From Pseudothauera rhizosphaerae (GTDB lineage: Bacteria > Pseudomonadota > Gammaproteobacteria > Burkholderiales > Rhodocyclaceae), in the NCBI RefSeq assembly GCF_004801305.1, contig NZ_SSOD01000003.1, positions 310,001 through 374,000 of the forward strand: a DNA stretch of 64,000 nucleotides. Reading direction: 5' to 3'. Position 1 is the first letter of the stretch. Each line of letters opens with the position of its first letter. Below, piece after piece: positions 60,882 to 64,000 of this stretch. The position numbers and the translations under genes are program-made. Under the pieces are notes generated by a model. The model saw only the letters and a list, made by a program, of their open reading frames with translations, was not told where the DNA came from and did no database searches.

Positions 60882-61421
60882 ATGGAGCCGACCGCGATCA
60901 TCGTGCTGGGCGCCCTCGCGGGCGGCTTCGTCACCGGCCTCGCGGGCTTCGGCACCGGCCTGACCGCCCTCGGCTTCTGGCTCCATGCCGTCGAACCGGT
61001 GGTGGCCGCCGCCCTGGTGGTGATCTGCTCCGTCGCCGGGCAGCTCCAGTCCCTGCGCACCGCCCGGGTGCGCCGCACCCTCAACTGGCCGCGCACCTGG
61101 CCCTTCCTGCTGGGCGGGCTGGCGGGCATGCCCCTGGGGGTCGCCGCCCTGCGGGCCGTGGATCCGGGGGCCCTGAAGATCCTGCTCGGCCTCCTGCTGG
61201 TGGGCTATGGGAGCATCACCCTGGGATTGCGGCGCATGCCCACCGTGGCCTGGGGCGGAAAGGCGGCCGACGCCCTCGTCTGCCTTCCCGCCACCCTGCT
61301 CGGCGCTTACGGCGGCATCCGCCTGTACGGCCGGGTCAACGATCGCCAGTTCCGCCGTTACCTTGTCCTGTGGCTGCTGCTGGCCTCGGGCATCGTGCTC
61401 GTCATCTCCAATCTCCGCTAG
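60882..61421 (+). CDS. TauE/SafE-like membrane protein, internally shortened
   Basis: 179 residues, all hydrophobic, where the sulfite-exporter TauE/SafE family is about 240-260. The N-terminal repeat (GGFVTGLAGFGTGLTALGFW, SLRTARVRRTLNWPR, LLGGLAGMPLGVAALRAVDP) and the C-terminal end (LGAYGGIRLYGRVNDRQFRR, LLLASGIVLVI) are intact. The middle, with the second GGxxGxxxGxxG repeat, is missing after GGKAADALVC. The reading frame stays open. Probably an in-frame deletion, so transport ability is doubtful. It lies 26 nt after pfp. Confidence 0.8.
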   Translation: MEPTAIIVLGALAGGFVTGLAGFGTGLTALGFWLHAVEPVVAAALVVICSVAGQLQSLRTARVRRTLNWPRTWPFLLGGLAGMPLGVAALRAVDPGALKILLGLLLVGYGSITLGLRRMPTVAWGGKAADALVCLPATLLGAYGGIRLYGRVNDRQFRRYLVLWLLLASGIVLVISNLR

Positions 61422-61546
61422 CACTGGTGGGGGTGCCGCAAGGCATGACGGCGACCGTACCATGGCTGTTACCGCCAACCCGCATGCCGCCGGGGTCGCC
61501 GTACAGGCCCTGCGCGCCGGTAGGATGCTGCGGGGTTTTCATGAAA

Positions 61547-62245
61547 CTAATTGAACTCGATCACTACCCGCCGGTTGTGCCGGCTCTTCTTCTCAATCTT
61601 CGCACAGCGCACTACACCGATCTCTCCGGTGTGGGCGACATGGGTTCCGCCGCAGGCTTGGAGGTCCACCCCGACGATGTCGACGACCCGCACTTGGCCG
61701 TCGTACATAGGAGGCACCACCGAACGGCTGCGGACCAACTCCGGCACGCTGTGCAGCTCCTCGGCAATCACCGTTCGCGTGGTCACGGGGATGCACCGTC
61801 CGATCAACTGAGTGAGCCGCTCGGTCACCCCGTCGCGGTCAATGGTGGGCTCGGGCAGATCGAAATCCAATCGCCCCCTGTCGGTGCCGATGGAGCAACC
61901 GGTCACCGGCGCGTCGACTACCGCGCACAGCAGGTGCAAGCAGGTATGCATACGCATGTGCAGGTGGCGTCGCTGCCAGTCGATCTCCGCGATGACATCG
62001 GCGCCCATCTCGATGTCCACCGGAGCCTCAGGTACGTGCAGGATCATCCGTGGATCCCAGGGGGCACGCCGGGAGTCGACGATGCGGATGCGACGCCCGT
62101 CGGCCAGTTCTAGCACACCGGTGTCTCCCGGTTGACCGCCGCCGACGGGATAGAACACAGTGTCATCCAGGACGACCATGCCCTCCGGGTTCGCGACCGC
62201 CTTTGCGACAATCCGCCGGGCATACGCATCTGTCTCGTATTGCAT
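61547..62245 (-). CDS. AlaX-type trans-editing (alanyl-tRNA editing) protein
   Basis: 232-residue free-standing editing domain that hydrolyses mischarged tRNA. Gly-rich DTVFYPVGGGQPGDTG at about residues 28-43, zinc motif HTCLHLLCAVV, and the second motif CGGTHVAHTGEIG near the C-terminus. I chose ATG 62245 because it follows AAGGAG with a 6-nt gap; the ORF extends in frame to 62272. It is the third gene of a low-GC operon with acetyltransferase and PLP-enzyme genes. Precise substrate (Ser, Gly or an unusual amino acid) is unknown. Confidence 0.9.
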   Translation of the reverse strand: MQYETDAYARRIVAKAVANPEGMVVLDDTVFYPVGGGQPGDTGVLELADGRRIRIVDSRRAPWDPRMILHVPEAPVDIEMGADVIAEIDWQRRHLHMRMHTCLHLLCAVVDAPVTGCSIGTDRGRLDFDLPEPTIDRDGVTERLTQLIGRCIPVTTRTVIAEELHSVPELVRSRSVVPPMYDGQVRVVDIVGVDLQACGGTHVAHTGEIGVVRCAKIEKKSRHNRRVVIEFN

Positions 62246-62255
62246 CAAGTACTCC

Positions 62256-63290
62256 TTATTCGCATTCGACATGATGAAACGCAAATAGGGCTATCCGTTT
62301 CCTTTCGACCAGCGCAGCCAATCCTTGCGGCGCCATAACGATGATTTCTTCTCCGTGGTCTGAGATTTTCACGTGATGCGGAAGGCATTGCGGAGCAGGC
62401 CCTGGCACGACGCCAATGACCTCGATACCGAGCACATGCGGCGCTTCGAGTGCCGTTTCAACGATCACCGATTGGCAAGGCAGGAAGTGTTCGTCGAGCA
62501 TTTCGACGCTCGGCGCCCCGAAGCCATTCCCGAGAACCATGATTTTCTTTCCGATGACTCCCGCGCCGACGATGCGCATCTGCGCCTCCGCCTTTGTGCC
62601 GTTCGGCCTGCCGATCTGCAACTGGCTCATGACGTTGACCTGGGTATTGCTCGGGACGTCTAGGGTAATCACGCTGTGAGGGGCGATGAACACGTGGTCA
62701 CCGACCGTGACAGGTCCCAGGATTCTGGCAAATCCGCCAATCTGAACATTGTCGCCGATCGTCGGATGCCTTTTGCCAATCGAGTTGGCCGAGATGCCTC
62801 TGGCTCCTAGAATGACGCCGCCCAGCATATAGCAATCGTCTCCGACCTCGGCAGTCTCACCAACCACAGTCCCGACCGCGTGGTCCAAAACGACTCGGCG
62901 GCCGATCCTTGCGGCCGGGTGAATGTCGGCACCCGAAATCACCTTGCCCTGATCCGCCAGCCAGCGGGCGGCCCGTTGCCGCAGATCGGTGCGATCGGGA
63001 AAGCTGAGCAAGGCATGGGCAAGCCGATAATGCAGGACGCAAACGAAAGAAGAATAGCTATCCAAGATGATGCGCGCGTCGCCATGCGCCGCGGGGTCCA
63101 CCGAAGCAAAGTGCAGAAGATCTTCTTCGAGTTCATCAGCGACGCTGTGGAGGATCGCCTCCGGTCGCACCGAGGAGCCCATCAGGGACTCCCCGTCCGT
63201 CGCGCTGACCGCATCGAGATAGAGGCGCCAGAGCTTGACCATAAGCCGTTCGCGCAGCATGTTCAGATATGGGGAGGGGAACGAATTCAT
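62256..63290 (-). CDS. cysE: Serine O-acetyltransferase-like protein with C-terminal extension
   Basis: 344 residues. The N-terminal helical SAT domain (about 1-140) and left-handed beta-helix (about 140-245) match CysE, including catalytic Asp and His in VVLDHAVGTVVGETAEVG and KRHPTIGDNVQIGG. CysE is usually 260-280 residues and ends in an Ile tail that docks in CysK. Here an extra 95 residues follow the beta-helix (from about AQMRIVGAGVIGKKIMVLG), ending HHVECE, and match nothing I recognise. ATG 63290 overlaps the PLP-enzyme stop (ATGA). GC is lower than in the flanking core genes. Confidence 0.88.
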   Translation of the reverse strand: MNSFPSPYLNMLRERLMVKLWRLYLDAVSATDGESLMGSSVRPEAILHSVADELEEDLLHFASVDPAAHGDARIILDSYSSFVCVLHYRLAHALLSFPDRTDLRQRAARWLADQGKVISGADIHPAARIGRRVVLDHAVGTVVGETAEVGDDCYMLGGVILGARGISANSIGKRHPTIGDNVQIGGFARILGPVTVGDHVFIAPHSVITLDVPSNTQVNVMSQLQIGRPNGTKAEAQMRIVGAGVIGKKIMVLGNGFGAPSVEMLDEHFLPCQSVIVETALEAPHVLGIEVIGVVPGPAPQCLPHHVKISDHGEEIIVMAPQGLAALVERKRIALFAFHHVECE

Positions 63291-64000
63291 CGTGCGGCTC
63301 CCTCTTTGTCGGTGGCGCCAAAGTATTGAAGGTACGACTCCGCGCCGTCATAGATCATTGTCAGTACCCGCGCGCCACGGTCGATATGGTTTCCGGCGCC
63401 TTGCTCGATCGCGACCAGATTCGCGGCAGAAGATATTCCCAGGCTGATCCCCTCGGTTCGCATGATTCTGCGGATCATGCTTAGGCAGTCGCCCAGGGAA
63501 ACACTTTCCATCCGGTCGATGATCCCGGTGTTCAGCACTTGGGGAATCAACCCGACCGATAGACCCTGAATGTCGTGTGGCACATGCCGATTGCCGAACA
63601 GGTCGCACCCCTCCGGTTGAACGCCGACCACCTCGAGGGTAGGCCAGGCTTTTTTCAATTCCTCACCTACGCCGGTGATGTGCCCGCCCGTGCCGATGCC
63701 GGCCACAAAGACATCGATTTCCGTATCGCCAAAATCACGCAGAATCTCTTGCGCGGTAGTGGCCCGGTGAATCGCCGGGTTGGCCGGGTTGCGCTGCTGG
63801 TTGAGCATGACGTAGTGCGGATTTTCAAGCAGAATCTCCATCGCCTTTTCGCCATGGGAATTGTTGCCCAGCCTGCTGTCCGACGGAATGGTCTCTGCTC
63901 CATACAGCCGCAGGATCGCCTGTTTCTCCGGGCTGTAGTTGTCCGGAATGACCAGTATCACCCGGTAACCATAAAGCGCACCGACCATGGCCAAGCCGAT
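63287..64000 (-). CDS. Cysteine-synthase-family PLP enzyme (partial)
   Basis: The N-terminus, including the PLP-binding Lys, lies beyond the window; 237 residues remain. Fold-type II features: VILVIPDNYSPEKQAILRLYGAE, RNPANPAIHRATTAQEIL, the PLP-phosphate loop GIGTGGHITGVGEELK, GVQPEG, and the end ISLGISSAANLVAIE. Family changes: the QQF substrate-pocket motif reads QQR after NQ shift, and GISSG reads GISSA. It could be O-acetylserine sulfhydrylase, cystathionine synthase-like or a beta-substituted alanine synthase. It is upstream of cysE in the operon. Confidence 0.85.
   Translation of the reverse strand: MGLAMVGALYGYRVILVIPDNYSPEKQAILRLYGAETIPSDSRLGNNSHGEKAMEILLENPHYVMLNQQRNPANPAIHRATTAQEILRDFGDTEIDVFVAGIGTGGHITGVGEELKKAWPTLEVVGVQPEGCDLFGNRHVPHDIQGLSVGLIPQVLNTGIIDRMESVSLGDCLSMIRRIMRTEGISLGISSAANLVAIEQGAGNHIDRGARVLTMIYDGAESYLQYFGATDKEGAAR

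What the first reader, a model, noticed from the sequence alone, without database searches (positions are those of the whole stretch)
61547..64000. Edge of a possible acquired cluster: PLP enzyme, serine acetyltransferase and tRNA-editing protein in one operon
Three genes on the minus strand overlap or nearly touch: the PLP enzyme and acetyltransferase share ATGA, and the editing gene's ribosome-binding site spans the acetyltransferase stop. Four hand-counted 60-base lines (62281, 62401, 63421, 63841) run 57-62% G+C, while line 60541 is 80%. SAT plus a CysK-like enzyme is the standard way to make beta-substituted alanines from O-acetylserine (as in D-cycloserine biosynthesis), and a tRNA-editing protein beside them is not needed for ordinary cysteine synthesis. 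Inference: the operon makes or handles a non-protein amino acid. The upstream genes lie outside the window.
Basis: partly seen in the sequence, partly recalled or inferred. Interest (0 to 1): 0.75.

Follow-up and report, generated by a model that had tools for sequence, protein, structure and literature searches.

The report
Acquired ubiquitin-like cysteine synthesis cluster
The three genes at the window's edge are the tail of a seven-gene cluster, apparently acquired from elsewhere, that seems to make and export cysteine (or a close relative) using a ubiquitin-like sulfur carrier, and that also carries its own tRNA-proofreading enzyme, whose purpose there is not understood.

Summary
In detail: AlaX-type tRNA editor, serine acetyltransferase (SAT) and CysK-like enzyme form one tight, GC-poor operon (60.1% against 68.9%). 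Past the window edge it continues with a ubiquitin-like domain fused to a MoeB-type E1, a JAMM protease, an EamA exporter and a divergent MocR regulator. It looks acquired: 5 of 5 genus mates have only ordinary SATs and lack it at this site, two having almost nothing there; a gamma-glutamyltransferase remnant marks its edge. The same seven genes, in order, lie in all 16 fetched loci of another genus; paper annotations point to PA2100-PA2106 of Pseudomonas aeruginosa. Best reading: a variant of the CysO/CysM/Mec+ sulfur-carrier route to cysteine with its own SAT, exporter and tRNA proofreader. This copy is odd: its E1 lacks the rhodanese domain and the cysteine that the 17 relatives read keep.

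The parts
61547..62245 (-). AlaX-M-like stand-alone alanyl-tRNA editing protein (ATG start; the longer ORF begins with TTG at 62284). Zinc ligands HxxxH and CxxxH are intact.
   Evidence: Pfam tRNA_SAD 45.5 bits and tRNA-synt_2c 42.2 bits; NCBIfam AlaXM 187 bits, below its cut-off of 300; solved AlaX/AlaRS relatives; alignment
62256..63290 (-). Serine O-acetyltransferase (CysE/EpsC-type left-handed beta-helix) with an extra C-terminal region of about 115 residues that matches no Pfam family
   Evidence: TIGR01172 cysE 137.5 bits over residues 55-218, below its cut-off of 210.65; extension found in cluster relatives
63287..64000 (-). CysK/CysM-like PLP enzyme (318 aa); the gene continues to 64243 on the contig. 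BEYOND THE WINDOW EDGE, in window numbering continued on G000:C3, follow: Ubl-E1 64279-65328 (-), a ThiS/MoaD-like ubiquitin fold ending in SGG fused by a short linker to a MoeB/ThiF-type E1, without rhodanese and with NANNKGV in place of the NC(S/N)A(G/N)GV of relatives; JAMM/Prok-JAB protease 65316-65795 (-), motif EECCG...HSHPDVGAYFSDED intact; EamA exporter 65850-66800 (-), start chosen by comparison with relatives, the longest ORF begins at 66899; divergent MocR regulator 66899-68311 (+).
   Evidence: PALP 251 bits; cysKM 299 bits, below its cut-off of 344; PLP lysine motif GGSHK and SGGNTG. Beyond the edge: ThiF 263 bits, ThiS 22.1 bits just under its cut-off of 22.5, Prok-JAB 57.1, EamA 123.9, GntR 55 and Aminotran_1_2 101 bits; MoeB subfamily 290 bits over its cut-off, EhuR-like 449.6 bits below its cut-off of 480; sequences compared
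61462..61521 (+). 20-codon remnant of a gamma-glutamyltransferase gene that is present at this site in two genus mates: left edge of the insertion
   Evidence: tblastn 75% identity over 20 aa, E 2e-4 with the G302 protein, 60% and E 0.027 with the G300 protein; G_glu_transpept 490 bits for the G302 gene

Best explanation
A laterally acquired seven-gene module for carrier-protein-dependent cysteine synthesis and export. SAT makes O-acetylserine from serine. The JAMM protease cleaves after the internal Gly-Gly of the Ubl-E1 protein to free the Ubl tail. The E1 domain adenylates that tail and it is converted to a thiocarboxylate: by the E1's own cysteine and rhodanese in relatives, by an outside sulfur donor in this copy. 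The CysK-like enzyme turns O-acetylserine into aminoacrylate, which takes the sulfur from the carrier. JAMM then releases cysteine from the carrier, as Mec+ does in mycobacteria. EamA exports the product, MocR controls the operon, and AlaX removes mischarged amino acids (serine, or the product) from tRNA-Ala while the pathway runs. Shown here: gene content, motifs, conserved order, acquisition. Inferred: every chemical step, the cleavage, the exported compound and the role of AlaX.
For: Domain calls and motifs. SGG at the Ubl/E1 junction in the window-genome copy, 16 of 16 loci of genus g29 and L141. Same seven genes in the same order in 16 of 16 fetched g29 loci, all chosen by a cluster-type SAT or AlaX match. 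JAMM and Ubl-E1 are one polypeptide of 628-636 residues in 14 of those 16; the C-terminal ends are alike in all 16, and Pfam confirms rhodanese in the two scanned, L018 and L040, and in L141. Published: Iyer 2006 lists ThiS/MoaD + E1-rhodanese + JAB + cysteine synthase operons, including P. aeruginosa (PMC1779556, passages). N-acetylcysteine raises PA2100-PA2103 (PMC9431628, passages). In a PAO1 strain lacking cysM on thiosulfate, and in the late growth of the cysK cysM double mutant, authors see a hint of a further cysteine synthase, PA2104 and/or PA1061 (PMC12800425, passages). The host keeps other SATs and CysK-like genes, so the module is accessory.
Against: In this copy the E1 has neither the rhodanese domain nor the cysteine seen in all 17 relatives read, so the sulfur-loading step is unexplained here. 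The Ubl has no free C-terminus without cleavage, which is only predicted. The 60 solved relatives of the CysK-like enzyme that are listed are cysteine synthases, cystathionine synthases, O-ureidoserine synthase and the like, some called cysteine synthase A. AlaX is not needed for any cysteine route I know. SAT, CysK-like and AlaX score below the curated cut-offs of their named models. The role of PA2104 is only suggested by its authors, and equivalence with PA2100-PA2106 rests on annotation, not on a sequence comparison. The five genes may not have travelled as one unit everywhere: in the AlaX tree L141 falls in a fork with three unlinked copies (L082-L084) rather than firmly with the cluster copies.
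Confidence: 0.6

Rival explanations
1. Non-protein amino acid module: SAT and the CysK-like enzyme make a beta-substituted alanine (with a thio group delivered by the Ubl, or another nucleophile); EamA exports it and AlaX strips it from tRNA-Ala, as self-protection.
For: A second operon type in 6 of 6 g29 loci examined (L041-L046): MocR <> SAT > AlaX-like > MFS > CysK-like PLP gene, with no JAMM or Ubl-E1 match at E up to 1e-3 (families). Editing proteins beside genes for odd amino acids are known: CtdA for canavanine (PMC10018355, passages); FthB with the exporter FthC for fluorothreonine (PMC7408626, passages).
Against: No further tailoring enzyme in the cluster. The AlaX-like protein of the second type is only 25-29% identical to the window's and does not reach a Pfam cut-off in the two scanned. 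FthB is ProXp-ST1-related, not AlaX (PMC11295145, passage). AlaX also lies near CysK-like genes with no match to the cluster's exporter or SAT. No product known.
Confidence: 0.22
2. Serine or thiol stress module: the operon drains excess serine or thiols through SAT, cysteine and export, and AlaX mops up Ser-tRNA-Ala formed when serine is high.
For: AlaX acts on Ser- and Gly-tRNA-Ala (PMC11295145, passage). PA2101-PA2104 and PA2106 are listed with 2.2- to 4.3-fold change on a sudden rise of RpoH (PMC9866376, passages; that the change is upward is my inference from the rest of that table and the paper's upregulated clusters). N-acetylcysteine raises PA2100-PA2103.
Against: A Ubl carrier and JAMM are an elaborate way to drain serine; no serine dehydratase among the cluster genes.
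Confidence: 0.13
3. Decaying import: the window copy is a partly eroded cluster whose E1 no longer loads sulfur.
For: Missing rhodanese and missing E1 cysteine; no other genome of the 300 searched in the order has the JAMM gene.
Against: All seven frames are open; zinc, PLP, JAMM and Gly-Gly motifs are intact; E. coli MoeB also works without a rhodanese domain (recalled).
Confidence: 0.05

Closest known systems
CysO-CysM-Mec+ cysteine pathway of Mycobacterium (sulfur carrier, cysteine synthase, JAMM protease, MoeZ as E1; details recalled)
   Same: JAMM protease, ThiS/MoaD-like carrier domain ending in Gly-Gly, E1 and a CysK/CysM-family enzyme; here all in one operon
   Different: Carrier fused to the E1 instead of free; own SAT, so O-acetylserine rather than the O-phosphoserine of CysM (recalled) is the likely substrate; adds AlaX, EamA and MocR; this copy has no rhodanese
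Row 4c operons of Iyer, Burroughs and Aravind 2006 (ThiS/MoaD, E1-rhodanese, JAB, cysteine synthase)
   Same: Same four activities, and P. aeruginosa is listed as an owner (PMC1779556, passages)
   Different: A search of that paper's main text gave 0 for 'alanyl', 'serine acetyl' and 'EamA': the SAT, AlaX and exporter partners and the JAMM-Ubl-E1 fusion are not in the passages seen
PA2100-PA2106 of P. aeruginosa PAO1
   Same: MdrR2 regulator, EamA transporter, JAB protease, MoeB, cysteine synthase, SAT candidate and AlaS-domain hydrolase under consecutive locus tags
   Different: Matched by annotation only; JAMM and MoeB carry separate locus tags there. The passages seen treat the genes singly or as rows of a table.
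PDTC and quinolobactin siderophore sulfur relays
   Same: Ubl carrier, E1-rhodanese and JAB protease set (Table 1 row 4a of PMC1779556)
   Different: No siderophore genes among the cluster genes; the acceptor enzyme is CysK-like

Membership tests
CysO/CysM/Mec+ pathway | JAMM protease with intact metal motif in the operon | tested here: met
   PF14464 57.1 bits; EECCG and HSHPDVGAYFSDED
CysO/CysM/Mec+ pathway | Ubl sulfur carrier with a free C-terminal Gly-Gly | tested here: inconclusive
   Gly-Gly present but internal, followed by a short linker and the E1; needs cleavage
CysO/CysM/Mec+ pathway | MoeZ-like E1 with rhodanese domain | tested here: not met
   Absent in this copy; present in L018 and L040 and L141
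CysO/CysM/Mec+ pathway | PLP enzyme that accepts the Ubl thiocarboxylate, giving a Ubl-cysteine adduct | not testable with these tools
   Needs biochemistry
D-cycloserine-type beta-substituted alanine biosynthesis | Racemase, ATP-grasp ligase and hydroxyurea-forming genes beside the SAT-like and CysK-like genes (gene list recalled) | tested here: not met
   None in the operon or among the scanned neighbours TauE, PEBP, MurJ and PFK; the rest of the window was not scanned for them
2,3-diaminopropionate (SbnA/SbnB) biosynthesis | SbnA-level match and SbnB partner | tested here: not met
   TIGR03945 200.9 bits against cut-off 349.95; no SbnB-like gene among those scanned
AlaX-M editing proteins | AlaRS editing fold with two-part zinc motif | tested here: met
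   but below the NCBIfam AlaXM cut-off
Vertically conserved core cysteine genes | Present at the same place in genus mates | tested here: not met
   Best SAT match in the 5 mates E 7.6e-32 against 4e-231 for itself (one mate is 86% complete); other content or almost nothing at the site in 5 of 5

The most novel reading that the evidence does not exclude
SAT, a CysK-like enzyme, AlaX, an exporter and a MocR regulator form the common core of a family of mobile modules that make, export and guard translation against small beta-substituted alanines. The Ubl-E1-JAMM cassette is one interchangeable nucleophile-delivery unit, self-processing from a JAMM-Ubl-E1-rhodanese polyprotein in relatives, and AlaX has been recruited to clear the product from tRNA-Ala.
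Probability: 0.25. Interest if true: 0.8.

Novelty: new variant of a known kind. Interest (0 to 1): 0.5.

Why it matters
It joins three things usually treated apart: ubiquitin-like sulfur carriers, cysteine export and tRNA proofreading. In the listings and passages seen, no paper treats the SAT-AlaX-exporter-Ubl set as one system (searches; passages 24, 30-32, 58), although the genes seem to be present in a well-studied species. The recurrent closeness of AlaX to CysK-like genes in Pseudomonadota is a directly testable puzzle: which amino acid on tRNA-Ala needs clearing when these enzymes run?

Tried and rejected
D-cycloserine-like cluster: rejected; none of the other expected genes in the operon or among the neighbours scanned.

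SAT C-terminal extension as a second ubiquitin-like carrier (its tail is V-G-G or I-G-G in all 16 g29 copies): rejected for now. The window copy and L141 do not end in GG, and profile comparison with the Ubl gave a probability of 0.2% (the window's own Ubl row was empty there through a slicing fault of mine, so the Ubl profile held the 16 g29 rows only). No Pfam match for the extension.

Structure of the SAT: one AlphaFold job on the window SAT alone gave mean pLDDT 38.8, useless; no fold search was made with it.

Plasmid collection: no record where one place covers 80% of the SAT query; for the Ubl-E1 protein one such record, not followed up.

Conserved operator between MocR and EamA: GTTCAAT occurs in 16 of the 17 intergenic stretches compared, not in the window copy, which shares only one 7-mer (AATATAG) with more than two of the stretches.

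TauE/SafE gene (60882-61421) as part of the import: left open. No TauE match at the site in the mates, but its G+C is 72%, like the host.
Full report
WHAT IS THERE. The window is bases 310001-374000 of contig 3 of a 4.6 Mb genome. The contig runs 7.56 kb past the window edge, and I read it. The three genes reported are the last three of a minus-strand operon of six, with a seventh gene divergent: MocR <> EamA > JAMM > Ubl-E1 > CysK-like > SAT > AlaX. Spacings are tight: EamA-JAMM 54 bp, JAMM/Ubl-E1 overlap 13 bp, Ubl-E1/CysK-like 35 bp, CysK-like/SAT overlap ATGA, and the AlaX ribosome-binding site overlaps the SAT stop. Coordinates of the four genes beyond the edge, in window numbering continued: Ubl-E1 64279-65328, JAMM 65316-65795, EamA 65850-66800, MocR 66899-68311.

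IT LOOKS ACQUIRED. G+C of 61547-64000 is 60.1% against 68.9% for the rest of the window, lower than all 1231 same-length windows compared. By codon usage six of seven cluster genes score below all 41 background genes and three background genes score below AlaX; by third-position G+C alone AlaX, EamA and MocR are not unusual. In the genus, the SAT has only ordinary SAT relatives in 5 of 5 other genomes, one of them 86% complete. The JAMM gene is found at E up to 1e-12 in 1 of 300 genomes of the order (its own) and 2 of 369 of the class. In two mates (G301, G299) the homologies on the two sides lie about 105 and 220 bp apart, against 7.6 kb in the window's genome. In G302 a gamma-glutamyltransferase gene lies between them, in G300 a gene like it plus a chemotaxis receptor, and in G303 other sequence. 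The flanking genes are a phosphofructokinase and a PEBP-family gene. A 20-codon piece like the gamma-glutamyltransferase survives next to AlaX, marking the left edge. The donor is not the g29 genus itself: protein identities to it are 38-69%, and in the AlaX tree the window's copy is a long-branched sister of the g29 copies (support 99/91).

THE CLUSTER ELSEWHERE. In an unnamed genus of the same class (g29) 40 of 199 genomes have a SAT match at E up to 1e-50: 34 matching into the C-terminal extension, 6 without it. I fetched 15 of the 34, plus one more found by AlaX: all 16 have all seven genes in the same order. In 14 of the 16, JAMM, Ubl and E1 are in one protein of 628-636 residues. Pfam finds JAB, ThiS (below cut-off), ThiF and rhodanese in L018, and ThiF plus rhodanese in the split form L040; the other 14 were judged by length and by their alike C-termini. 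A third lineage, L141 (G595, about 41% G+C), has JAMM, Ubl-E1-rhodanese, CysK-like, SAT with extension and AlaX. Its Ubl-E1 and CysK-like genes each lie in two frames; no EamA was matched, and the one weak MocR match, 7 kb away, is an aminotransferase without the GntR domain. Papers on P. aeruginosa name the same series of annotations at PA2100-PA2106 (passages seen in PMC9431628, PMC9866376, PMC13256707); I could not compare those sequences.

WHAT IS UNUSUAL IN THIS COPY. All 16 g29 proteins and L141 have N-C-(S/N)-A-(G/N)-G-V in the E1 domain where this copy has N-A-N-N-K-G-V. That cysteine corresponds, as I recall, to the acyl-transfer cysteine of Uba4/MOCS3. Together with the missing rhodanese domain this makes the E1 look able to adenylate but not to load sulfur by itself. 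The S-G-G at the Ubl end is kept in all 18 proteins. Residues of MoeB that I recall as catalytic or zinc-binding line up in the alignment with the solved MoeB.

MECHANISM. See Best explanation. The JAMM protease would act twice: to free the Ubl tail (in the fused relatives, from its own chain) and to release cysteine from the carrier. Shown: presence and motifs. Inferred: all chemistry.

THE tRNA EDITOR. AlaX is not a chance neighbour of CysK-like genes. 65 of 398 genomes of the phylum have an AlaX match at E up to 1e-22, 68 places in all. I fetched 40 of these places, the first ones mostly by rank and the rest by hand. One (L116) is a g29 cluster. Of the other 39, 20 have a CysK/CysM-like gene on the same strand: 8 adjacent or overlapping as ORFs, 12 at 0.9-2.7 kb; two further weak matches on the other strand (L088, L115) were not counted, and 17 loci have none. 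The 20 come from 8 families, 10 of them from one family (f48), so they are not independent. None of 20 shifted control regions, from 20 of the same genomes, had a CysK-like match; one had a SAT and one a MocR-like match. In two loci read more closely (L080, L095) a rhodanese-family gene follows AlaX. In the AlaX tree the CysK-linked copies lie on several branches, mixed with unlinked ones; counted against the cluster rows they need only one change, so a single old origin of the link is not excluded. The same tree does not firmly join L141's AlaX to the other cluster copies: it shares an unstarred fork (93/94) with them and with three unlinked copies, L082-L084. All this weakens the argument that an editor beside SAT and CysK must mean an exotic amino acid, and sharpens the question of what AlaX does in cysteine metabolism.

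SECOND ARCHITECTURE. The six g29 loci whose SAT lacks the extension (L041-L046; SAT 46-52% identical to the window's) all have one and the same other operon: MocR <> SAT > AlaX-like > MFS > CysK-like PLP gene (6 of 6, genes 65-88% identical to those of L044). No JAMM or Ubl-E1 match at E up to 1e-3 in any of the six. Families: MFS_1 in L044, PALP and GntR plus aminotransferase in L041, all over cut-off. The AlaX-like protein is divergent: 25-29% identical to the window's, NCBIfam AlaXM 103 bits in L044, below Pfam's cut-off in L041 and L044, with the HxxxH and CGGTH motifs kept in those two.

NOVELTY. The sulfur-carrier plus cysteine-synthase operon is known (PMC1779556, passages). The full seven-gene set, the JAMM-Ubl-E1-rhodanese polyprotein, the SAT with a C-terminal region unknown to Pfam, the AlaX link and this reduced E1 were not found described in the searches made; the library holds open-licence papers only, and I saw listings and passages, not whole texts.

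Noticed in passing
L041-L046 (unnamed genus g29): A second operon type with MocR, SAT, AlaX-like, MFS transporter and CysK-like PLP gene, lacking the ubiquitin-like cassette; product unknown.
   Followed up: partly
L079-L118: AlaX lies on the same strand near a CysK/CysM-like gene in 20 of 39 non-cluster loci; in L080 and L095 a rhodanese-family gene follows AlaX.
   Followed up: partly
L002:1463-1522 (window 61462-61521); L154-L158: The site between the phosphofructokinase and PEBP genes is variable in the genus: almost empty, gamma-glutamyltransferase, that plus a chemotaxis receptor, other sequence, or the cluster.
   Followed up: yes
window 60882-61421: TauE/SafE-family gene of 179 codons between the phosphofructokinase and the cluster, 72% G+C, not found at this site in the genus mates; possibly a sulfur exporter linked to the cluster.
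   Followed up: partly
L017-L019, L029-L040, L116 (SAT C-termini): The SATs of all 16 g29 clusters end in V-G-G or I-G-G, like a ubiquitin-like tail, while the window copy and L141 do not.
   Followed up: partly
L141:9134-11523: Ubl-E1 and CysK-like genes each lie in two reading frames in a draft genome of about 270 contigs: decay or assembly error.
   Followed up: no
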